From: Cristatella mucedo
Taxonomy: Eukaryota > Bryozoa > Phylactolaemata > Cristatellidae
Assembly: GCA_009760855.2 (NCBI GenBank)
Contig: WPIO01000010.1
Location: 5,293,501-5,357,500, forward strand
Length of the DNA: 64,000 nucleotides
Direction: 5' to 3'
A program made the position numbers and the translations under genes. Numbering within the stretch: the first letter of the stretch is position 1; each line of letters begins with the position of its first letter. Under the pieces are notes generated by a model. The model searched no databases, was not told the DNA's origin, and worked only from the letters and a program-made list of their open reading frames with translations. Below are positions 7,701 to 64,000 of the stretch, piece after piece.

Positions 7701-10700
7701 CCTACTTATTTGCGCAAAACCAACTCGATAAGCATAAGGCAGGCAGCCAGAGATGCACAGGCTCAGTACAGTGTAAGCTAATAGCTAATACCTGGGTACC
7801 AAAGGGTCGTGCTGACGTGACTAGAAACTCACTACAACCTCTGAATGGGTGACAACAGCCAATCGCGACAACAGCTGCTGCTGCTATCTTGTTGTCAAAA
7901 TAAAGTAGACAACAAGATGCCGTCGCCTCTCACAGCTCGAAGTACCGCAAAGTACATACTTTTCGCCAAGGTAGTTTCCTATTGCAGTCTTGTTTAGGCC
8001 TTCACCTCGGTACAGAAACTCGGCAATGTCTTCGGGTGAGTCCTGGAGTAGCCCCTCCTCAATGAGGAACTCAATACCCTACAATGAAAATGCAGATAAT
8101 TTGGAATATCAACTGACAACTATTTGTGCCTAGACAAATAACCAGCATTTGGATCACGATGGAGCAAATAATAGGAAATGGAGAGTGTGGAGTGTGACCG
8201 TAAAGCAAACTGGGAAATTAAATGAGCACTCCAAGGGGACAAGTACCACTGAGGGCTGGCATTTTGATGAGATACAGCTCTATTTTAAGGACCAAATACA
8301 AAGCACGAATTAAACCACCCAGAGGTGAGATCAAAGCTGTAAAGTTGCCACCGGACTACGCAAATCACATAATAATAATAATAATAATATTAATGCACTT
8401 GATAAAGCGCCCCCAGAGAACTTAATCTCGTTCTAGGTGCTTTACATTTGCTGCAAAGGGAAATGCAATTGAATGGTGAGTAAAATTATGCTTAATATAC
8501 AAACGAAATGAATAACATGGTTAGGGGTGACATGCACAGGTTCAGCATGCAAATGTGGTTAGTGGCAGCATGCACAGTGTCAGCACGCATAAGCACAACA
8601 AGGACGAATCACAGGGACCCACTAAATGCTGTCCTAAATAGTTGTGTTTTTAAGTTTCCTTTAAATGTGGTCAGGTCAGGGGATGTTCTGATGCAGGTCG
8701 GGAGGGAGTTCCAGGCTTTGGGAACATACGAGCTAAATGCACGGTCTCCAAAGGATTTAAGGTTTGTACGAGGTATTTGTAGACTGTTGGATTCCGAGAA
8801 GCGAGTGGTACGATGTTTGGCCTGATGGGGTAGTATATCTGACAGATAGGCTGGAGCAATAGAATGAAGGGACCTAAAAGTGAGCGACAAAACCTTGAAG
8901 TCAATCAGTTGCTTGACTGGTAGCCAGTGCAGGTCGGCGAGAAGTGGAGTAATGTGGCAACTGCGACGCTCACGACAGACAAGCCTAGCTGCAGAGTTTT
9001 GCACCAGCTGCAATCGCCTGATCGCACATGCTGGTAGGCCAGTAAGCAGTGAGTTGCAGAAGTCGAGACGAGATGTCACGAATGCATGGACCAACTAAGA
9101 CGTGGTATCCTTATCTAAACAAGCCCTAATTTTAGCAATGTTATGAAGCTGAAAATAGGCTGATTTGACTGTGGAGCTGATGTGGTCGTCTAACGAGAGG
9201 TCGCTTTGAAATATGCCACCTAGATTTCGAGCTGATTTAACTGGAGATATGCTGGCAGAGCCAATTTTGAAAGTCAGCCTTTCCAATTTCTGAATCACAC
9301 TAGGTTTGCCCATAACTAGTAAGTTAGTTTTATCATCGTTTAGTTTTAGAAAATTTGCTGCCATCCATGATCGGATGTCATCAATGCATGCAGCAAGTGA
9401 GTTGAGAGAATTTGAGGTGCTCGAAGGCTGGGAGGGATCAAAGCAAAGGCACATGTTTCTATTAGCAACCCACAATGAGAACAAGAACCAAAGCCTTGCT
9501 ATTGTGGAGAACCGACACTTTAGGCCTGACTGACTTTAGTATAAAATCGCGTCTGACCAGCAACATACATCTCACGTCTCGCAGTAAAGCATAAGTTGAG
9601 GGGTGCACAAATAAATAAATAAATAATGGATAAATAAAAAGGCGTAGCAAAGAGTGCGCACTAGGAAATGGATTGCCACTTGCAGAGGGGCTGTCTGGTG
9701 GCGAGCTATTGTCTTGTAATAGGTGACAGGGCCGCCAAAGCAAAGATCTGCTGAAACTAAGAAAAATGCAGATAGCACAGCATTCAAAAGCAGCATAGCA
9801 TTTTGCATTTGCTAATATGGCCCTGTCTTGGTTTTAGAACGGCATCATCTTTGCTTTGCCTTGGCTATATGCTTTTGGTTTCGCGTGAGAACATGGCCAC
9901 GATTGTCTTTTGTGTGGCCTACCAAACCTTGATCACACTGAGAAGGCCAAAGACCTAAAACAAATGCAGAGTAGAAAACACTACCAAGTAGCCTGTTTTT
10001 TGCCAGCACCTCCATGTTTCCTGTTTGGCTTTTGAACACAGACAAACAACTAATCAGTGCCTTCCAAGGTACTGACCGATTTCGATGCTTAGAAAAAAAG
10101 GTGGTGCCAACAAACGGGATACATTAAAAGTTAAATGTGGTTATGGTCTAGGGCTTGAGGCATGCCAACAATGCAACGACTTTTAAGGTCATTCGGGAAC
10201 AAAAACATGAACTATCTAACAAGAGACATTTCGGGCCAGATTCTCAAAAAGCAGCACAATAAAACGATATGCACCCTGAAAGATGTAATTAAAAGCAAGC
10301 AAAAGTGTATGAAAACTGCAACCAATTCTTTTCTCACTTCACTTATTATGAACGTTGTAAATCCTGTCGATAATTTATTCAGTTTTTGCCGAGAAGATGA
10401 AATCGTGCTAACGGAATGATTTGAGTGCATCTAGAACACTGCACAACATGATAATAATAATAATAAAAACAATAATAAGATTTGCATAAGACCCATACAT
10501 AGCTAATTGAATCTCTTTCTAAGCGATCCCCATATGCTGCAGAGCACACGAGTACAATTAAAGTGGCTCACGAGCTGAACCACTATGTTCACTAAATAAC
10601 CACATTAGCTCACCAGTCAAGTCTGCATATTTTCATCTATGTAACATTTAAAAAATTTGAGCACACTTAGAAAGGCAAGCAGGTCCAAGCATTTTCGACA

Positions 10701-13700: not shown

Positions 13701-16700
13701 CAGAACAAGAAAACCCCTGGTAGCAAGCCACGAACATAATGGTATGACAATAATAAAAATTAATATTTATAAATCAATGCTAGCTGATTAAACAGCCTCA
13801 TTTATATAGTGGCAGAAGAGCCTTTGCAGCAACCGCCCCCTTCCCCGCCTGTGGCATGCAGAAAAGTATTATCAGCGGTCAAAGTATTTCAGGACTCGAA
13901 CCCACGCCCTGGGTCGTGAGATGCAAGCATCTTATCCCAGCGCTAAGGATAAGCAACACAACAGCCATCAGCTTGGAGCAATAGAGCGATGGATTGGAAC
14001 GATGCAATAGCCATCAGAAAAGAGAGATGCTTAAAGGTGGGAGGTTTCAGTGAGGCAAAAATTAAGGTAATCACGAATCAGTGATTCAGTGAGCCAGCAG
14101 AAAACCACAGCCACAGTCTTCACAAAGCAACATTGCAAAACATTCACATGCACAGTAGTCTAGCAGACCTGAAGTCCAAATAGTTAGAGCTGTAGCAGTT
14201 ACAAGATGAGGCAGAAGACGGCCATGCAAGACCGGATTTCTGATCTCACTTGGAGAGAGGGTGTGTGTGAAAAAGCAAAGCATCACCAAGGCAGAGCAGG
14301 TAGTTTTGCCTGGTCAAGTCAATGCAGATGACAATGCAACATGGATGATGTCGAGACATAGCAAGTCAGGAGTGAGTTCCAAGCGTTGGGAGCACGTGAA
14401 CAAAAGGCACGGTCTCCAAAGGACTTGAGGTTTGTACAAGGTATAGGATACAAGTTGGATTCCGAAAAGCGAGTGGTACGATGCTTAGCCTGGTGGGGGA
14501 GTGGATCTGATAGGTAGGCTGGAGCCAAAGAATGAAGGGACCTAAAAGTGATCGACAAAACCTTGGAGTCGATGCGTTGCTTGACTTGGAGCCAGTGCAG
14601 GTCGGCAAGAAGTGGTGTGATGTGGCAGCTGCGACGCTCACGACAGACAAGCCTAGCTGCAGAGTTGTGCACCAGCTGATTGCACAGGCCAGTAGACCAG
14701 CAAGCAGTGAGTAACAAAAGTCAAGACAGGATGTCACAAATGCATGGATCAACATAAATGTGGTATCCCTTCATTTCACTTTACAGCAAATGTAAAGCGC
14801 CTAGAGAGAGATTAAGTTCTCTGAGGGCGCTTTATCAAGTGAATTATTATTATTATTATTGAATTATTATTATCCCTGTCTAAACAAGCTAGAATTTTAT
14901 CAATATTATGAAAGTAGGAAGACTTGATTGTGGAGCTGATGTGGCCATCTAACGAAAGGCCACTTTGGAACATGACACCTAGATTTCGTGCAGATTCAAC
15001 AGGATATGCTGGCAGAGCCGATTGTCATCGTTAACCTTTCTAATTTCTGAATCACACTTGGTTAGCCCACAACTAGCAAGTTGGTTGTATCATCATTCAA
15101 TTTAGGAAAACTTGCTGCCATTCATGTGTGGATGTCATCAATATATGCAGCAAGTGAGTTGAGAGAATTCGACATGCTGGAGGGCTCAAAGCAAAGGTAC
15201 AACTGTCATCTGCATCGACGCGAAAGCCTTGATTTTGCCTTGCATTCACATCGGCTAGAGGAAGAGCATAAACCGTGAAAAGAACAGGACCAAGTACAGA
15301 TCAAGACCCATATTTCAGAGGTACCTTGGATAATTTTTGTCCATTCACATCAATACTCTGGAGTCTCCTACTGAGATAGGACCTGAACCATTGCAGAGCA
15401 GTGCAAGTGATGCCCAGGCGGGATAACAGGCGCTCAGGAAGGACTTGGTGATCGATAGTATCAAAAGCTGCCAACAGATCGAGCAAAACAAGCAGAGATA
15501 CTCTACCCATGGCTACATTCCTAAGTGGGTCGTTGTAAACCCGATAGGCTGAAGTGCCGACAAGCCTTTCCCCGTGACACTTTAATTCACATGCACAAAG
15601 AAAATGCAATCTACGGTAGGACAGCTGGAGCTTTTCTAACCCATCTGACATATATTGGATATGTTGGCAGCTGCTCAGACAGAAGCTGCTTTTTCAGATG
15701 TGAACCAAGTGCTCGAGCCAGGGAAAGTGTAAATGAAACTGATTCAATAACAGCTGCCAGAAGAAAGTTCCACAGTGAAACTGCTCCAAGCAGCCACCGG
15801 CGGCTGTGGGCAAGCAGCATGGAAAAAGACCAGAATGGTGTTCTGGTGTGACTAAGCAGTCATTGCAGTGACTGGACAAGTACACCAGCAGTGGGATCAC
15901 AGGCCGGCAATCTAAAGACATACTAACTTTTCTTATTGTACACAAGCTTGCAGCACTTACAGCAGTATGCCTGAGCAAAGATGTACAGTTTGCGATGTGC
16001 ACATAGAAAATGAGCTCGACGTGACCAGCACTGTTGCATACACCACAGCTATGCAAGCAAAGATTGCTGCATGTTCCACCGATCTGAGCCAATAGCAGAA
16101 AGGCTACCACTACATCTGACCTCAGGCAATTGATTACAACTAGCACTAACCAGAGCATTCTGTTCAAGTAACTCGAAACTCATGTCCCAATCTGATAGGA
16201 TTATTAGCTAGGAGGTGTGCAACAAAAGGTCGAGCTAACATATCATAATATCGCGACACAAGTGCAGACTCACCCTTCCTCTGGCATGTCCATACGCTCT
16301 ATCTCTTGGGTAACGGCTTCGATTTCCTTTCTAAGAAGCTGCAAACCAGATTTCATTGCACATAACATTAAGACACTGGACTTGATGAAGCAAGCACTGA
16401 CGATGGTCAGATGTACTGAACCGATTTCGGACAATGCCTTTAACTAGATCAAGTGCTCAAAAAGCATAGACGGGATTGTAACACCCTTGAAACCACGACG
16501 TAGGCAAACCTTACCTCAATGTCTCTAATCAGCTGGGTTTTACGGGTGCGTATCTGATTAAGCATTTCTTGCTCTTCGGGTGACAGATCTACAAAATAAT
16601 GGAGCATAGTTCATGAGACTTGGGGGAGGTTTAGATAAAAGTCAGAAGAAGGGCTTTGCTAGCAGAGCACCTGGAAACAAAGGCATAGAAATTTTCCTCG

Positions 16701-32124: not shown

Positions 32125-33318
32125 ATGGCCGACAGTGCCGGTGGTGCTCGGAGCGAGCATTTGCGGACGGAAATGGAAGCGCAGAGGTACGACGTGGTTG
32201 TCATTGGCGCTGGCGTCCAGGGCAGCGCAGCGGCTTACACTCTGGCCAAGCGTGGCGTGAGAGCGCTGCTGCTCGAGCAGTTCCACCTGCCGCACTGTCG
32301 CGGGAGCTCTCACGGCGCCACGAGGATAACTCGCAAGGCGTACGAGCAGGACTACTTTGTAAAGATGATGATCGACGCCTACGCTCTGTGGGAGGAACTG
32401 GAGCGAAGCACCGGCGAAGCTTTGTTCAGGAAGGTCGGCCTGCTCACTGTGGAAAACAAGCCGGGAGCAACGGTCAAGGTCATCGAGGACAACCTGGGCC
32501 GCCACGGGCTCAAGTACAGCAGCATAGCGGCGGACGAACTGAAAGCTCGGTATCCCCAGCTAGCTTTGCCTGACGGCTACGTTGGTGTCTTAGACGACGA
32601 CGCGGGGACGCTGTACGCGCACAAAGCTGTGCAGTGCTTTCAGAAGGAGTTCGCGAGGTACGGCGGAGTCCTCAGAGATGGTGAGAAGGTAGAGAGCATA
32701 ACTCCTGGCCATCTGCTACGAGTCAAGACTTCTAAGTCGACGTACGTGGCCGATGGCTTGGTAGTGTGCGCCGGCCCGTGGGCGGGACCGCTGCTCGAGA
32801 CCTTGGAATTGCGATTGCCTCTCCAGCCGGTCACATGCGACGTCTGCTACTGGAAGGAGAAAGTGGAGGGATCGCACGCGGACCTTCCTACCTTTATGTA
32901 CTACGGTGATTACGGCGAAGTCTACGGCTTGCCTCCGAACGAGTATCCAGGAATGCTTAAGATATGTCTCCATAGAGGCGTACCGTCGCAGCCCGACACG
33001 AGGGACGCTGACGCAGCGGCACTGGAAAGGCAGCATGAACATTTAACCCGCTTCGTCGAGCGACATTTTCCCGGCTTGGAATCGAAGGCTGCCATTCGTG
33101 AAAGGTGCATTTACACTCTCACCCCGGACAATATATGCATTTTGGATCGCCATCCCAAATGGAACAACATTGTGATCGGTGCTGGCTTCTCGGGGACAGG
33201 GTTCAAGCTGGCCCCCGTGGTCGGAAAGATTTTGACCGACATGGTACTCAGCGAGCAGCCCGTGTTTGATCTGGCTCCGTTTAGCATATCGCGATTTCAG
33301 CCACAATCCAAGCTCTGA
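32125..33318 (+). CDS. PIPOX: Peroxisomal sarcosine / L-pipecolate oxidase, intronless
   Basis: Flavoprotein that oxidises sarcosine or L-pipecolate (with L-proline also possible) using O2, producing H2O2 in peroxisomes. The 397-residue ORF is complete. It shows a Rossmann FAD motif VVVIGAGVQGSAAAY (25-38), the flavin and substrate motif SSHGATRITR (61-70), K279 and H283 in LKICLHRG, matching the oxygen-activating Lys and nearby His of bacterial monomeric sarcosine oxidase, C328 in RCIYTLTPD at the position of the Cys that binds FAD covalently, and the second FAD block GAGFSGTGFKLAP (352-364). It ends in SKL, a perfect PTS1 peroxisomal signal. Human PIPOX has about 390 residues. The first ATG directly follows an in-frame stop; Met17 is a possible alternative start. 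The gene is uninterrupted and GC-richer than its flanks. Substrate preference cannot be read from sequence alone. Confidence 0.95.
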   Translation: MADSAGGARSEHLRTEMEAQRYDVVVIGAGVQGSAAAYTLAKRGVRALLLEQFHLPHCRGSSHGATRITRKAYEQDYFVKMMIDAYALWEELERSTGEALFRKVGLLTVENKPGATVKVIEDNLGRHGLKYSSIAADELKARYPQLALPDGYVGVLDDDAGTLYAHKAVQCFQKEFARYGGVLRDGEKVESITPGHLLRVKTSKSTYVADGLVVCAGPWAGPLLETLELRLPLQPVTCDVCYWKEKVEGSHADLPTFMYYGDYGEVYGLPPNEYPGMLKICLHRGVPSQPDTRDADAAALERQHEHLTRFVERHFPGLESKAAIRERCIYTLTPDNICILDRHPKWNNIVIGAGFSGTGFKLAPVVGKILTDMVLSEQPVFDLAPFSISRFQPQSKL

Positions 33319-36702: not shown

Positions 36703-36799
36703 CCAAGTGAGCACATGACCAGTATGAGCATCGTAATTCCGAATATTTTGGGCAGATACCTGCAGGAAATGTCCTTACCGTAGAATTATTCACTCATTT

Positions 36800-38012
36800 C
36801 TCGGTTTGACTTTCAATTGTGGAGGTGCGTGCTAGGTCCGGTTCTTTTCACGGTTTATACTCTCCCTCTTGCTAATGTGATTGCAAAGCACAATCTAGGC
36901 TTTCACTTCTATGCGGATGACACTCAGTTGTACCTTTGCTTTGATCCCTCCCAGCCTTCGAGCACCTCAAATTCTCTCAACTCCCTTGCTGCATGTATTG
37001 ATGACATCCGCACATGGATGGCAGCTAATTTTTTAAAACTAAATGACGATAAAACTAACTTACTAGTTATGGGCAAACCCCGCGTGATTCACAAAATGGA
37101 AAGGCTGAAACTCAAAATTGGCTCTGCCAGCAAATCTCCAGTTGAATCAGCTCGAATATAGGTGTCATATTCCAAAGCTACCTCTCGTTAGACGACCACA
37201 TCAGCTCCACAGTCAAATCTGCATATTTTCAGCTTCATTACATTGCTAAAATTCGGGCTTGTTTAGATAAGGATACCACATATAAGTTGGTCCATGCATT
37301 CGTGATATCCCGTCTCGACTTCTGCAACTCACTGCTCACTGGCCTAACGGCATGTGCGATTAGGCGATTGCAGCTGGTGCAAAACTCTGCAGCTAGGATT
37401 GTCTGTCGTGAGCGTTGCAGTGGCCACATCACACCACTTTTCGCTGACCTGCATTAGCTACAAGTCAAGCAGCGGATTGAATTCAAGGTTTGGTCGCTCA
37501 CTTTTAGGTCACTTTATTCTTTGGCTCCAGCCTATCTCTCAGATATACTCCCCCATCAGGCCAAGCATCGTACCACCCGCTTTTCGGAATCCAACAGTCT
37601 ACAGATACTCCGTACAAACCTCAAATCCTTTGGAGACCGTGCATTTAGTTCGTATGCTCCCAAAGCCTGGAACTCCCTCCCGACTTGCGTCAGAACATCC
37701 CCTGACCTGACCACATTTAAAAAGAACTTAAAAACACACCTATTTAGGACAGCATTTAGTGGGTCCCTGTGATTCGTCCTTTATGTGCTTATGCGTGCTG
37801 ACACTGTGCATGCTGCCACTAACCACATTTGCATGCTGAACCTGTGCATGTCACCCTTAACCATGTTATTCATTTCGTTTGTATATCAAGCATAATTTTA
37901 CTCACCATTCAATTGCATTTCCCTTTGCAGCAAATGTAAAGCGCCTATAACGAGATTAAGTTCTCTGGGGGCGCTTTATCAAGTGCATTAATATTATTAT
38001 TATTATTATTAT
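36800..38012 (+). mobile_element. LINE family A, 5'-truncated copy with intact 3' end
   Basis: Starts inside the RT at [19 protein letters not shown]. The catalytic box FYADDTQLYLCF is intact. It continues through [18 protein letters not shown] and [13 protein letters not shown] to FRTAFSGSL and stop, then a 3' UTR, the tail GCAAATGTAAAGCGCCTATA with GGGGGCGCTTTATC, and (ATT)n. One frameshift (after ESARI) and one stop (in the ADLH block) are visible. Confidence 0.93.
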
Positions 38013-47500: not shown

Positions 47501-50500
47501 CCGCTCTTTTGTCTCCATTATCGTCATATTTCTCATCCTCTTAGAGAGATACCGAAACCCCGATTCTTAACAAAAGCTTTGCTTCACACCTCCGCCGCAA
47601 CTTAGATACAAGCTTTTGACAGTAAAACCTCTCTTTAGGCATCTTTCTGACATGCATGCTCTGTCCGTATTCATAGCAATTTACAAAAAGAATATCTGCA
47701 CCAGACGTAATGCACATGATCCTCTAATGCATATACGTATACTTTTTTGACGGGTTAGATACAGATATAAAGTCATGTTGTCAGCTGCTAGACTTCAGAG
47801 CTCATTAATTCGAGTGACTATGCAAGCGGAATGAGATTTAAATAAGTGCATTGATCAAAACTTACTCTTAATTTCTGCTCTGAAGGCTTTAAAATAAAAG
47901 TACGTTACTACGGAATTTTCCTTGTAAATTAATGCTGTGAACTGCACCATTGTAAGTAAGAGGGACAGCACTTGTCCACTCAAGTTTCCCTGAATCCATT
48001 AACAACCACTAGAAGGCCATTACGGAGAGTCGTGTTCGTCAAGTAGCTCACAGATGCGATGCATTATATTTGTGTAAAGCCTATGCAAACACCTATGACA
48101 TAGTAAATTATGGCACTCATTAATACCTCAGGTCTATGAATTAAACGTAATAAAATGAAATTTTATTCTAAAAGTGTTTGATAAAGTTTACTATACAGTC
48201 TTCTGCTGCGTTTTGGTGCTTGAAGCTGAATTTTGGTTAGTGTGAAGACATACCAGAGTGGTTCGATTTTTTTTTCTGCGGAATATGTTTTTTATTGCCA
48301 GCAGACGAAATGTAGGTCCGTTTGCTGTAAGGTAAGTTTCTGATCTATCCAAAAGACCCAGAAATGCAATGAAATACCAGTGCAAGCTATCTGCTTGATC
48401 GGCCAATTGCAGCATATTCACTGCATTTTTTAGAGTCCGGCTGCACCGCAATGACATCCTTAGGTGAAAGAGTATGAAGCTGAAATGAGCTACCAAATCA
48501 GTGAAAGCAATTTACACTGACAAAATACCTCACCTAAATACCGAAGTTGTAAATCATTGCAAGCTAAAGACACGCTATTACGTAGAAAACGCTCTGAGCG
48601 TTTAAGAAACGGCTAGTATTTCAGTCATCATGTTGGCTGCCTCTGAAAGCGGTAGAACCACCTCTTGAAAAAGATACAATACTACCAGCATAGCGTGACT
48701 GCAGGTTTGAGGCTTTTTCGGGGGGGGGGGTAGAACACAAACCTTCGTATTTGGCTGTCACAGACCAGCCGTAAAATCATAAGATGCCGAGGGATCCAAA
48801 AGTTTACACCACACATTTCGTGGTATAATTTCAATCCACTCTCTCGTACTCAAGCTCCAATCATCGGCGCTCTACCATTAAAGCACTATAACAACCGGTG
48901 CCATTCTGCCGTCTCTCCTCAAAAGCTTGGGGTTTTTCGTATGCGCAAACGGAAAGCGAGCTTGGCTTGGTGGTGGCCGGCAGCATTGCCAGCAAGGGCC
49001 CCATTCAATCGACGTCGGTCCTCCTTTATGCCCGCCCATAAGCCTGGGAGCAATTGTTCGATTCAAGGCCATTAGGTGCAGCAAACCTGCGCCGAACACG
49101 TTGCACATATTTAGAGCATCACATTGCTTAGTTTGAACGTATACAAACAAAAATGCCTCGGCTGTAACGGTACTAGTGAAGCCTGGTTCGTGTTCCAAAG
49201 TGACCTTTCACTACACGACCACATCAGCTCCACAGTAGTCAAGTCTGCCTACTGTCAGCTACACAGCATTGCTAAAACTCGGACTTGTTAACACATGGAC
49301 ACAACGTCTAAATTGGTCCATGCATTTGTGACATCCCATCTTGACTTCTGTAGCTCACTGTTTGCTAGTCAACCGGCCTATGCACTCAGGCACTTACAGC
49401 TGGTGCAAAACTCTGCAGCTAGGCTTGTCTGACGTGAGCGTTGCAGTTGCCACATCACACCACTTCTCGCCGACCTACAATGTCTTCCAGTCAAGAAACG
49501 CATCGAATTCAAGGTTCGGTCACTCACTTTTAGGTATCATTATTCTTTGGCTCCAGCCTACCAATCAGATCTACTCCCACCAGGCTAAGCATCGTAACAC
49601 CCGCTTTTCGGAATCTAACTGTTCGCCCATACCTCGTACAAATCTCAAATTCTTCGGAGACCGTGCCTTTAGTTCGTATGGTCCCAAATCCCGGAACTCA
49701 CTCCCGACTTGCGTCACGACATCTCATGACTTTTGAAAATTTAAAAAGAAACTAAAAACGCATCTATTTATCACAGCATTTAGTGGATACCTGTGATTCG
49801 TCATATATGCGCTTATGCGTGCTGATACTGCGCTTGCTGCTGCTATTAACCACGCTTGCATGCTGACCCTGTGCAAGTCACCCCTAACCGCGTTATTCTA
49901 GAAGTTTATTGAGCATGCTACCACTAACTATTCGATCGTGCCTCCCTAGCAGCAAATGTAAAGTGCCAGGAAAGAGATGGAGTTCTCTGAGTGAGCTATA
50001 TCAAATGCATTATCATTATTATTATATTACTAAATGCTTGAAATACTGGTGATTCCTAAAACCTTCCCGGTCAATGGACAATAAAAATTGCGAATGTTTC
50101 TCAGTTGGCTTAGTTGTTCAGCCAACTTTCTTGCTGTCTGCATTATCAGTTTACCTGTCAGAAAGACAGCCCTTGACGCTGAAGCACCCACTCACGAGCC
50201 CAGCATCCAGGTCTCATTAGCCAAGCGTCTCTTGTGTAGTGCTGGTTGGCTATAACAGGCCAACTACGTGGCCCCTTGTGCTAGAATGCTGCAGCCTGAC
50301 CGAACGAGAGCCTAGTTTGGCACTCCTTGCTGCTCGAGTAAGTCCTCCACCTATTGCCTAAGCCTCAACCTGCCCCATTAAATAACGTGCGGGTTGCATC
50401 TCGACATTTGCCTAGTCGCTGCCTACAGCTCATTTTCGTGTCGATTTTCTGCATTCGGGCAGCGGTTGATAAATGAAGTAAGCAAGCGACGGCATGGCCG

Positions 50501-50602: not shown

Positions 50603-53600
50603 CATATGAAAAGTACGAGGTAATGTCTAATGAGAGGTTCAAATGCATTCGGATATGTATTTTTGGCAGATTCATCTAGTCACTCGAGGCGAAAGAGATC
50701 TGCTGATGGTGTGTCGGCGACTGTCAGCGTCAGTCAGTCAGTCAGTGTGACGCTGGAGCAGGTCGTTCATGTGATGCACTATATAAGTATTGCTATACTT
50801 TCGGTGTTGGTGCTGGAAGCTCTGCTGAAGGTCATCGCTCACGGCAAACATATACTGAGCTTTAAAATGGAGGTGAGTGGCTGTGACTAATATGTCCAGG
50901 CATTGTGGCTGGAGTAATTTGAGGCATACTGGATTGAATTAGGATCTTCGATGCTGCATGATCCAGCATTGACTGCTTACCTATGAGAAAGCGTGCAGCC
51001 CAAACATGAACTCCTTTCAAGTACCCTGAGGCAATAATGATAATAATAATAATATTGCACTTAATAAAGCGCCCTCAGAGAACTCAATCTCTTTCTAGGC
51101 GCTTTACATTTGCTGCAAAGTGATACGCAATAGAATAGTAAGTAAAATCATGCTTGAAAAACAAACAAAATGAATAACATGGTTAGGGCTTACATGCACT
51201 GGGTCAGCATGCAAATGTGGTTAGTGGCAGCATGAACAGTGTCAGCACGCATAAGCACATCGAGGACGAATCACAAGGACCCACTAAATGCTGTCCTAAA
51301 TAGGTATGTTTTTAAGTTTCTTTTAAATGTGGTCAGGTCAGGGGATGTTCTGAGGCAGGTCGGGAGGGAGTTCCAGGCTTTGGGAGCATACGAGCTAAAT
51401 GCACGGTCTCCAAAGGATTTAAGGTTTGTACGAGGTATTTCTAGACTGTTGGATTCCGAAAAGCGAGTGGTACGATGCTTTGCCTGATGGGGTAGTATAT
51501 CTGAAAGATAGGCTGGAGCCATAGAATGAAGAGACCTAAAAGTGAGCGACAAAACCTTGAAGTCAATCCGTTGCTTGACTGGTAACCAGTGCAGGTCGGC
51601 GAGAAGTGGAGTAATGTGGCAACTGCGGCGCTCACGACAGACAAGCCTAGCTGCAGAGTTTTGCACCAGCTGCAATCGCCTGATCGCACATGCTGGTAGG
51701 CCAGTAAGCAGTGAGTTGCAGAAGTCGAGACGAGATGTCACGAATGCATGGACCAACTTGGACGTGGTATCCTTATCTAAACAAGCCCTAATTTTAGCAA
51801 TGTTATGAAGCTGAAAATAGGCTGATTTGATAATCAATAGCGGTTCAGTTTTACTGTTAGCCTTGAACCGGCTGCAAGCTAATTCAGCCAGATTATGACG
51901 TATATTTATTATTTGTGGTTCCTGAATTGTAACGGATAGGAACTGATTGTACGATGATCGATAGCCGAGGTGAAATAAAAGCCGGCGGGCGCCACGAGAT
52001 AGACCATCTGTTATTTTTCCGATGTTGGCACTGGAGCTGATATGAGCTAGGCCACTGAGCCTTTGGGGTATTCCATGGCCGCTGCTGAACACCTATAAGC
52101 CTCCTTTGCTGTCGAATATACTTATCTAGGTTACGGATACGGACTCGTTACGTTAAAGTATGGGCGCTTTTAACTGCAGTGCTCTACTACTGTCTGCATT
52201 CCTATGTGCATTGGTGCTTCACTTATAAGTTACTGGCCGTAGTACAATGATCAGGTGTCATCGGTATTTGTTGGGCATCGATTGAGACTGACGCTGCACT
52301 GTTAAGAGCGCTGTGTTTACGACCTTGTTTTGCCCAAACGTGGAAGTCGTATACCACGCTTCTAACACTACGTCTGGTAGAAAGCTATAGCTACCGTCGA
52401 GAAGCAGTATCTCTTTATTGATTGCCAAGAGGTCTTACGACCTTTGGGGTGATATGAAACCTCCATCCCCGCAGACCGAACTGGAAGGTATATTCTGATT
52501 TTGGCCGCCTTGGGATTAAACGAATATTCAGAACTAGGGAAAATGAGCAGCAGGGAATTGAATGCGTTATTTATGTTAGTTACAAGATACCTTACCACAC
52601 TAGACAAAATTATGAGCGTGCAGCAATCATGAGATCTGCGAAATCAGCTAAATGTAAAAGTGCATTTAACCAATTTACCTAGCTGTTGCAAGAGGTTACG
52701 ATGACGGAGCCTAATTTAAAAAAATGCATTTTAGGTAATGGATGCTTTGGTGAATGTAGCGTCGCTCATTATCGACATCCTACTCACCGACGCTTCCATT
52801 GTCGGGGCCATCGGAAAAGTGCTCGTTATACTAACGCTTATATGGAGAGTAGTTCGCATATTAAATGGTAAGTTATACTCCATTGCCTGCAGCTTGCGCG
52901 ACTGGACGTTAAGCATTCCGGAAAAAAATACGATTTTAACGAGGCCACGATTTTTCCATTTCAGCTATAATAATAACTTCCAGAGCACGCTATAAATTCA
53001 GAATTAGCCTACTGAAGAAAACGAAGCAAATTATCGAGGAGAAATTGGAATCGTTGGAAAATTATGTGACTCGAGCAAAGCGCGAAATGGAAAGGCTCAG
53101 TCAAATTGCTACATTCTACGGAGCGCCAGCGTACGAGGTCAAGGTGTTCACCGATTGTGAGTGGCGCTAAATGGCGAAAGGGCGCTGCGGCTCGCGCTCG
53201 TCCTAGACAGACACGCCGTCCTATGCGCAGTTAGCTGCGGGCGGTGCCTAGTAGTAAATTGCGGCTTGACTGAGCAGATTTCATCGTAACGTCTCGCAGC
53301 CTGTAGCTTGACAAAGTCGTGCGGACTGCGGCTAAAAAATCAACTAATTCAACAGCTCACTCATCTAGCGGCAGAAACGCCTTAACGACTTTCACGTCGC
53401 TCGCTCGCAGCGGGCACTGCAGAATTGCTTGCCACATGACTTAAACTCAAGAGAAGACAGGCGTGGACTACATTATAAGTGTAGAACGCCCGAAGAACGA
53501 TCAGTCGCATGCTTTTATCGTCATTGAATACCTATCCGCGGTCAAGTGCATCGCAAGCAGGCATAGAGAAGCTAAATTAGTCAAGCTGTCTCAGGATTAT

Positions 53601-60423: not shown

Positions 60424-60591
60424 TGCGTTTTTCGTCACTCCGTAAATGCTGTGATGTTAACTGCTGAGCACAAGATATTGCACACAAGGAGAAGAGGGAG
60501 GAGTAGAAGGGAAGGGGCGGGGAGCACGAGAGGAACAATCATGGCGGGCGGACGTAGGAACGTTGGCAACAGGTCAATGGTAGTGCTAGTG

Positions 60592-60778
60592 CAGTGGTCC
60601 TCAATCTTCCTAATGCCGCGACTCTTTAATACTGTTCCTCATGTTGTGGCGAAACCCAACCGTAAAATTATTATGTGCAAAATGTCGAAACGCGTGTTTT
60701 CCGACAGCCTTGAAAAACCCCTGTGAAAGGGTTGTTCGATCCCCAAAGGGGTCGCGACCCACAGGTTGAGAACCGCTG
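60592..60778. mobile_element. hAT miniature transposon resembling SPIN/URR1, 187 bp
   Basis: Starts CAGTGGTCCTCAATCTTCCT and ends CACAGGTTGAGAACCGCTG. The terminal inverted repeats match as CAGyGGTyCTCAAyCT. An 8-bp flanking duplication, TGCTAGTG (60584-60591) versus TGTTAGTG (60779-60786), is the hAT size. Internal blocks GTTCCTCATGTTGTGG, AACCGTAAAATTATT, TGTTTTCCGA, CCTGTGAAAGGGTTGTTCGA and CCCAAAGGGGTCGCGACCC correspond, as I recall it, to the ends of the SPIN non-autonomous (URR1) consensus, with the middle deleted. It has no ORF and needs a transposase in trans. Confidence 0.88.
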
Positions 60779-60786
60779 TGTTAGTG

Positions 60787-63227: not shown

Positions 63228-64000
63228 TAATGATAATAATAATAATAATGCACTTGTTAAAGCGCCCTCGGAGAACTTGATCTCTTTCTAGGTGCTTTAC
63301 GTTTACTGCAAAGGAAATGCGATCGAATGGTTCGTGTTATCGTACTTGATAAACCACATGAATAACATTGTTAGGGGTGACATGCACAGGGTCAGCGTGC
63401 AAGTGTGGTTAGTAGCAGCATGAACAGTGTCAGCAAGCATAAGCGCATAAAGGACAAATCACTGGGACTTACTAAATGCTGTCATAAATAGGTGCGTTTT
63501 GCGTTTTTAAGTTCTTTTTAAATATGGTCAAGTCAAGAGATGTCGTAACGCAAGTCGGGCGTGAGTTCCAAGCATTGAGAGAAAACGAACTTAATGTACG
63601 ATCTCCAAAGGATTTGAGGTTTGTACCGGGTATAGGTAAGCAGCTTGTTTCCGAAAAGCGGGTGGTACGATGCTTGGCCTGGTGGGTGAGTAGATCTGAT
63701 AGGTAGGCTGGAGCCAAAGAATGAAGGGACCGAAAAGTGAGAGACAAAACCTTGAAGTCGATCCGTTGCTTGACTGAGAGCCATTGCAGATCGGCAAGAA
63801 GTGGTGTGATGTGGCAACTGCGATGCTCACAACAGAAAAGCCTAGCTGTAGAGTTTTGCACCAGCTGTAAGCGCCTGATTGCACATGCCAGCAGGCCAGC
63901 AAGAAGTGAGTTACATAAGTCCTAACGGGATGTCACAAATGTATGGACCGAAGTAGATTTTGTATCCTTATCTAAAAAAGCCCAAATCTTAGCAATGTTA
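63228..64000 (-). mobile_element. LINE family A, 3' part, continues beyond the window
   Basis: Reverse orientation from (ATT)n and the tail GCAAACGTAAAGCACCTAGA upward through the C-terminal ORF blocks ([41 protein letters not shown]) to the window edge. A small insertion near 63493 repeats TGCGTTTT. The frame is damaged. Confidence 0.9.

What the first reader, a model, noticed from the sequence alone, without database searches (positions are those of the whole stretch)
60584..60786. SPIN/URR1-like hAT element in an apparently invertebrate genome
Both ends and the 8-bp target duplication are nearly intact, and the internal blocks match the SPIN/URR1 miniature elements as I remember them. SPIN is a documented horizontally transferred family, patchy in tetrapods and reported in a triatomine bug and a pond snail. 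Near-identity of the ends would suggest a recent arrival. Its presence here could help to place the host and its parasites.
Basis: partly seen in the sequence, partly recalled or inferred. Interest (0 to 1): 0.78.

Follow-up and report, generated by a model that had tools for sequence, protein, structure and literature searches.

The report
SPIN jumping gene in an invertebrate
This is a short copy, unable to move on its own, of SPIN, a DNA transposon known for having crossed between distant animals; it is one of at least hundreds of scattered copies in the genome of an invertebrate probably related to molluscs, so it widens the host range of a known element but is neither a new kind of thing nor, on this evidence, a fresh arrival.

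Summary
Window 60592-60778 is a 187-bp element with 13/16 matching terminal repeats and a 7/8 target duplication; among lengths 100-400 no other place in the window, and none of 40 shuffles, gives that. The 572-Mb host genome holds many copies (40 scored of 2,052 candidates; exact end motifs 116 and 144 times); most aligned copies have 8-bp duplications centred on TA. Their consensus matches the rodent SPIN relative URR1 as I recalled it (79/81 and 84/84 bases in the end blocks) and mouse primers printed in papers (17-19 of 20). Longer copies carry the recalled SPIN interior. SPIN membership is well supported but rests partly on recall. Mitochondrial code and gene order point to a lophotrochozoan, not a vertebrate. 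'Recent arrival' is not supported: this copy is 10.7% from consensus and the best copies found reach only 96%. No transposase-bearing SPIN copy was found, in capped lists. Most likely: a deletion derivative moved in trans by SPIN transposase after a past horizontal transfer.

The parts
60584..60591 (.). left target-site duplication TGCTAGTG (central TA)
   Evidence: 7/8 match to the right copy
60592..60607 (+). left terminal inverted repeat
   Evidence: 13/16 against the right end
60592..60672 (+). 5' end block (81 bp)
   Evidence: host consensus vs recalled URR1 79/81
60673..60694 (+). short middle (22 bp) where the internal deletion lies; not URR1-like
   Evidence: 14/22 against recalled URR1; longer host copies carry the recalled interior here
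60695..60778 (+). 3' end block (84 bp)
   Evidence: host consensus vs recalled URR1 84/84; the printed mouse primers align here
60763..60778 (-). right terminal inverted repeat
60779..60786 (.). right target-site duplication TGTTAGTG (central TA)

Best explanation
The element is a non-autonomous (MITE-type) copy of the SPIN family of hAT transposons. It keeps both SPIN ends, which a transposase would bind and cut, but almost none of the interior. It was inserted by cut-and-paste, leaving an 8-bp duplication centred on TA, by a SPIN transposase supplied in trans from a longer copy. The family entered this invertebrate (probably lophotrochozoan) lineage by horizontal transfer, spread in a burst to at least hundreds of copies in several deletion-length classes, and has since decayed. 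Shown: anatomy, target duplications, copy family, near star-like divergence, longer deletion derivatives, invertebrate host. Shown only against recalled and short printed references: SPIN identity. Inferred: movement in trans, the burst, and the horizontal transfer itself.
For: TIR+TSD pair unique in the window (lengths 100-400) and absent from 40 shuffles. Of 39 other copies the duplication is 8/8 in 12, 7/8 in 17, 6/8 in 2; in these 31 the left copy has T at position 4 in 30 and A at position 5 in 30. At all 17 positions outside the middle where the window copy differs from the host consensus, the recalled URR1 agrees with the consensus (read off). Printed mouse primers vs consensus: Ate1_R1 18/20, Ate1_R2 18/20, Kcnq1ot1 19/20, Elmod1 17/20; four other primers of these papers 10-15/20. 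Ate1_R2 was not found by its match. A recalled 75-nt interior piece, absent from the window copy, has 40 scored matches of 92 candidates, the best-scoring 91% over its full length; a recalled 125-nt deeper piece has 40 of 80, the best-scoring 90% over 122 nt. L078 matches 120/126 of the recalled SPIN beyond position 84; its alignment scores 176 against at most 15 for 30 shuffles. Copies of 187, 304, 327, 498 and 509 bp were read directly. Mean pairwise divergence 10.7% vs twice the consensus distance 11.5%.
Against: No SPIN reference could be fetched: exact-pattern scans of viral contigs and genome contigs gave 0 and blastn of phages none, so the long comparison rests on recalled sequence. Of 12 SPIN words searched in printed papers only two were found at all. 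How URR1's interior joins its 3' block is the least certain part of my recall. No transposase-bearing SPIN copy was seen: 0 of 138 hAT dimer-domain matches lay within 6 kb of 100 (of 116) exact 3' ends or of the 80 interior hits, and 0 of 46 DUF4371 matches near 164 listed SPIN places; these lists are capped. A 3-bp difference from the recalled interior and a different middle show the host family is not identical to URR1. 8 of 39 copies show 5/8 or less in the duplication. No tree across hosts was built.
Confidence: 0.92

Rival explanations
1. Vertebrate (for example rodent) DNA contaminating the assembly carries the element.
For: The SPIN ends match mouse sequence printed as primers.
Against: The 40 scored copies lie on 27 contigs, 23 of them longer than 2 Mb and the longest 24.8 Mb (lengths); 31 of the 39 aligned besides the window copy have duplications of 6/8 or better. 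CpG observed/expected is 0.87 in the window and 0.83 in a 200-kb sample. The commonest copy type has a middle unlike recalled URR1 and the three longer copies aligned lack the same 3 bases of the recalled interior. The genome's mitochondrial contig reads AGA and AGG as Ser, AAA as Lys and ATA as Met in cox1. No direct search for other vertebrate repeats was made.
Confidence: 0.02
2. An ancient, vertically inherited Buster-type hAT family of invertebrates that merely shares ends with SPIN.
For: This genome has other hAT elements (138 dimer-domain matches). No SPIN transposase was found, and the references are recalled.
Against: The 84-bp 3' block is identical to recalled URR1, the 5' block differs at 2 of 81, and longer copies match recalled noncoding SPIN interior: by inference too much conservation for separation since protostomes and deuterostomes parted.
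Confidence: 0.05
3. A recent arrival.
For: Many copies keep both ends and 12 of 39 an 8/8 duplication.
Against: The best of the 40 candidates scored with the consensus (of 2,336) are 96% identical; three copies not chosen by similarity to the consensus are 87.4, 89.3 and 92.5% identical to it. No transposase copy was found.
Confidence: 0.06

Closest known systems
SPIN (SPACE INVADERS) hAT transposons and their SPIN_NA MITEs
   Same: Terminal repeats, end blocks and (in longer copies) interior as recalled; 8-bp duplication with central TA; dispersed non-autonomous deletion derivatives
   Different: Host is an invertebrate of lophotrochozoan type; the copy class of the window has its own 22-bp middle; a 3-bp interior difference; no transposase copy found
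URR1 (rodent MITE family of the SPIN group)
   Same: Consensus end blocks 79/81 and 84/84 against the recalled URR1; primers from three mouse loci match 17-19/20 (that these lie in URR1 is inferred)
   Different: URR1's interior (recalled) is missing from the window copy and present, with a 3-bp difference, in longer host copies
SPIN-like hAT of the snail Biomphalaria glabrata (PMC5440852, passage seen)
   Same: Lophotrochozoan host; a hAT transposon with significant identity to SPIN; the passage says no intact transposases were detected among its DNA transposons
SPIN of Rhodnius prolixus (PMC11614815, passages seen)
   Same: Vertebrate-type SPIN in an invertebrate, ascribed to horizontal transfer
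   Different: Blood-feeding insect; the passages call the transfer recent and count fewer than 5 SPIN copies in piRNA clusters

Membership tests
hAT superfamily | 8-bp target-site duplication flanking short terminal inverted repeats | tested here: met
   Window 7/8; other copies 8/8 in 12, 7/8 in 17, 6/8 in 2, lower in 8 of 39
hAT, Buster-type | target duplication of the form nnnTAnnn (recalled, no call) | tested here: met
   T4 30/31 and A5 30/31 in left copies, 29/31 and 28/31 in right copies, among the 31 of 39 with >=6/8
SPIN | terminal repeat CAGYGGTTCTCAACC (recalled) | tested here: met
   Consensus ends CAGTGGTTCTCAACCT and CAGCGGTTCTCAACCT; mouse primer Ate1_R1 18/20, its first base lying outside the element
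SPIN | high identity to the family consensus beyond the terminal repeats | tested here: met
   163/165 over the two end blocks vs recalled URR1; L078 120/126 beyond position 84 vs recalled SPIN; Ate1_R2 18/20. The references are recalled or 20 nt long
SPIN | an autonomous relative encoding SPIN transposase in the same genome | tested here: inconclusive
SPIN | patchy, horizontally transferred phylogeny | not testable with these tools
   No animal genome other than the host was searchable
MITE | short, non-coding, high-copy, shares ends with a longer parent | tested here: met
   187 bp, many copies; shares ends with copies of 304, 327, 498 and 509 bp; the full coding parent itself was not found

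The most novel reading that the evidence does not exclude
SPIN invaded a lophotrochozoan lineage outside the freshwater snails already reported, possibly a phylum in which it is unknown, and lophotrochozoans served as a long-standing reservoir between tetrapods and their parasites.
Probability: 0.15. Interest if true: 0.65.

Novelty: new member of a known kind. Interest (0 to 1): 0.45.

Why it matters
SPIN is a standard example of a transposon moving between distant animals. A further invertebrate host with several SPIN length classes, its copies some 3 to 13% from the consensus, adds a data point on when and through whom it travelled: invasions of several mammal lineages are put at 15-46 million years (passage of PMC5857283). 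Once the host is named, dating these copies against host neutral sites would say whether it was invaded before, with or after them.

Tried and rejected
Looked for a real SPIN reference: exact patterns in viral contigs and genome contigs 0 hits; blastn against phages no match (plasmids and E. coli not tried); Rfam gave 3 matches far below gathering scores. Paper text search with six SPIN words of 13-15 bases found two papers, both on mouse Ate1 with the same primers, through one of the six words. A second search with six words of 12-17 bases found four papers, all through one 12-base word; I opened the two on mouse and, from their titles, took the other two (a Staphylococcus protein, shrimp feed) as chance without opening them.

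Tick, other arthropod and vertebrate hosts were considered. The arthropod cuticle domain gave 0 and molluscan haemocyanin 0, but no control genome rang for either, so neither excludes anything, and the second does not favour a mollusc. The phylum stays open. A search for 18S rRNA gave no usable answer and was not repeated.

The abundant 640-aa hAT family (L075) was tested as the autonomous partner and rejected: best match to the 15-base SPIN end 10/15 and different likely termini. L077 has SPIN interior but my end search did not find its termini; it is left out of the length classes.

Full report
Observation. Window 60592-60778 is a 187-bp element. Its 16-bp ends match in inverted orientation at 13 of 16 positions and it is flanked by TGCTAGTG / TGTTAGTG, 7 of 8. 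A scan of 19,183,934 start/length combinations (lengths 100-400) found this one alone at those thresholds, and 40 dinucleotide shuffles gave none.

Family in the host genome. The window is G000:C11:5293501-5357500 in a 572-Mb genome of 688 contigs. The element has 40 scored matches among 2,052 first-look candidates; the 39 others are 85-88% identical to it. I fetched those 39 with flanks. The duplication is 8/8 in 12, 7/8 in 17, 6/8 in 2 and lower in 8; in the 31 with at least 6/8 its centre is TA in nearly all (T4 30/31 and A5 30/31 left, 29/31 and 28/31 right). This is the Buster type of hAT duplication (recalled). The consensus of the 39 is 187 bp. The 39 differ from it by 3.2-8.6% (mean 5.8%), the window copy by 10.7%. 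The 39 were found by similarity to the window copy, so they lean to low divergence; the two copies in a systematic 200-kb sample are 92.5 and 87.4% identical to the consensus over their aligned lengths. Mean pairwise distance (10.7%) is close to twice the consensus distance (11.5%), as expected of a burst from one source. Searching with the consensus gave 41 matches (40 of 2,336 candidates scored), best 96%.

Copy number. Two copies in 200 kb would mean about 5,700 in the genome, Poisson range roughly 700 to 21,000 (my arithmetic). An exact 27-base 3' motif occurs 116 times and an exact 28-base 5' motif 144 times, with 0 for the reversed control patterns. 12 and 10 of the 40 aligned copies hold them, which, these copies being the less diverged ones, gives at least some 390-580 copies (my arithmetic).

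Is it SPIN? No SPIN reference could be fetched. I therefore typed the rodent URR1 consensus from memory, in the same script that first computed the host consensus; until then I had seen only the window copy and the 16-base ends of the others. The two agree at 79/81 (5' block), 14/22 (middle) and 84/84 (3' block) positions. At all 17 places outside the middle where the window copy departs from the host consensus, the recalled sequence sides with the consensus, so the recall was not shaped by the window. The join of URR1's interior to its 3' block is the least certain part of that recall. A test that does not rest on memory: primers for mouse DNA or RNA printed in PMC2767504 (passage; the same in PMC2837401), PMC6221546 (passage) and PMC10259482 (passage) match the host consensus at 18, 18, 19 and 17 of 20 bases, while four other primers from these papers match at 10-15. 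Three were found because they contain a SPIN word of 12 or 15 bases; the fourth, Ate1_R2, was not, and still matches 18/20. That these primers lie in URR1 copies is my inference. Ten of the 12 SPIN words searched occur in no paper of the library, and one 12-base word also occurs in two papers that look unrelated.

Interior. The window copy lacks the recalled SPIN interior, so that interior is an independent test. A recalled 75-nt piece has 40 scored matches (92 candidates) in the host genome, the best-scoring 91% over its full length, and a recalled 125-nt deeper piece 40 (80 candidates), the best-scoring 90% over 122 nt; by position they merge to 66 copies on 47 contigs. Of four such loci fetched, three hold copies with both ends, of 509, 327 and 304 bp, with duplications of 8/8, 6/8 and 8/8; in the fourth, L077, I found no ends. 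L078 matches the recalled SPIN at 196/209 positions, and at 120/126 beyond position 84. L080 is a 498-bp copy (its duplication, read by eye, is 7/8). L081, part of a copy of about 0.9 kb by spacing, shares interior with L080 (85% over 156 nt) and with L076 (76%). I read these as deletion derivatives of a longer parent.

Autonomous copy. None was found. hAT dimer domains gave 138 matches (150 of 766 candidates scored) and DUF4371 46 matches (150 of 237 scored); none lies within 6 kb of the SPIN places listed. 55 of the 138 share one score; 15 of those 55 have open frames of 635-642 aa, and one read in full (L075) encodes a 640-aa BED-finger hAT transposase without SPIN ends. The lists are capped, so absence is not shown.

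Host. CpG observed/expected is 0.87 in the window and 0.83 in the 200-kb sample, unlike vertebrates (recalled). The 21-kb mitochondrial contig C688 fits code 5: in cox1, AGA and AGG fall where I know Ser to be conserved, AAA at Lys, ATA at Met. On one strand it has cox3-atp6-cox1-nad3 and nad1-nad6-cob-nad4L-nad4-nad5; nad2 and cox2 lie on the other (gene names by my reading of the translations). The second block is the reverse-strand block described for solenogasters and said to correspond to that of chitons (passages of PMC11488289); nad6-cob adjacency alone is common in lophotrochozoans and also in arthropods (passage of PMC2728741). In permissive tRNA calls K, A and N follow cox3 and I precedes nad3, remnants of the KARNI cluster described for chitons and several other molluscs (abstract of PMC11488289). 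I place the host in Lophotrochozoa, mollusc or near it, without naming a phylum; molluscan haemocyanin was not found (no working control).

What is known. In the open-access library SPIN is reported in mammals (PMC5857283, passage), in Rhodnius (PMC11614815, passages), and a hAT of about 1,000 copies with significant identity to SPIN in Biomphalaria (PMC5440852, passage); a pond snail is recalled from Gilbert et al. 2010. My searches (seen as listings, with 30 of 66 papers shown, 15 of 19 and 10 of 67) showed no title or abstract start reporting SPIN in another lophotrochozoan.

Verdict. A genuine SPIN-type MITE in an invertebrate, a new member of a known kind. On the evidence here it is not a fresh arrival; its age in years is not measurable with these tools.

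Noticed in passing
window 60705-60716: Eight of the window copy's 20 differences from the host consensus fall in consensus positions 114-125, seven of them transitions: a local cluster of change in one copy.
   Followed up: no
window 32125-33318 (+): A 397-aa uninterrupted FAD-dependent oxidase frame (Pfam DAO), best PDB match monomeric sarcosine oxidase; it shows no intron.
   Followed up: partly
window 8609-9535 (-), 14319-14720 (-), 36784-37710 (+), 49332-49736 (+), 51271-52092 (-), 63472-63921 (-): Several broken pieces that look, by eye, like one non-LTR retrotransposon protein; of the three scanned, the 36784 piece matches Pfam RVT_1 and the 51271 and 8609 pieces match no family.
   Followed up: partly
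L075 and the 54 other places of the same score: A hAT family with 55 dimer-domain matches of identical score, 15 of them with open frames of 635-642 aa: apparently young and perhaps active in this genome; the one copy read has no SPIN ends.
   Followed up: partly
G000:C688 (L072, L073, L068, L074): Mitochondrial contig of 21 kb with identical repeats of 2.1 kb (direct) and 1.8 kb (inverted) and genes on both strands in an unusual order.
   Followed up: partly
G000:C166:4375626-4376390, C83:2826-3735, C549:2641741-2642010, C299:634220-634540: Partial cox1 matches on other contigs, possibly nuclear mitochondrial insertions.
   Followed up: no
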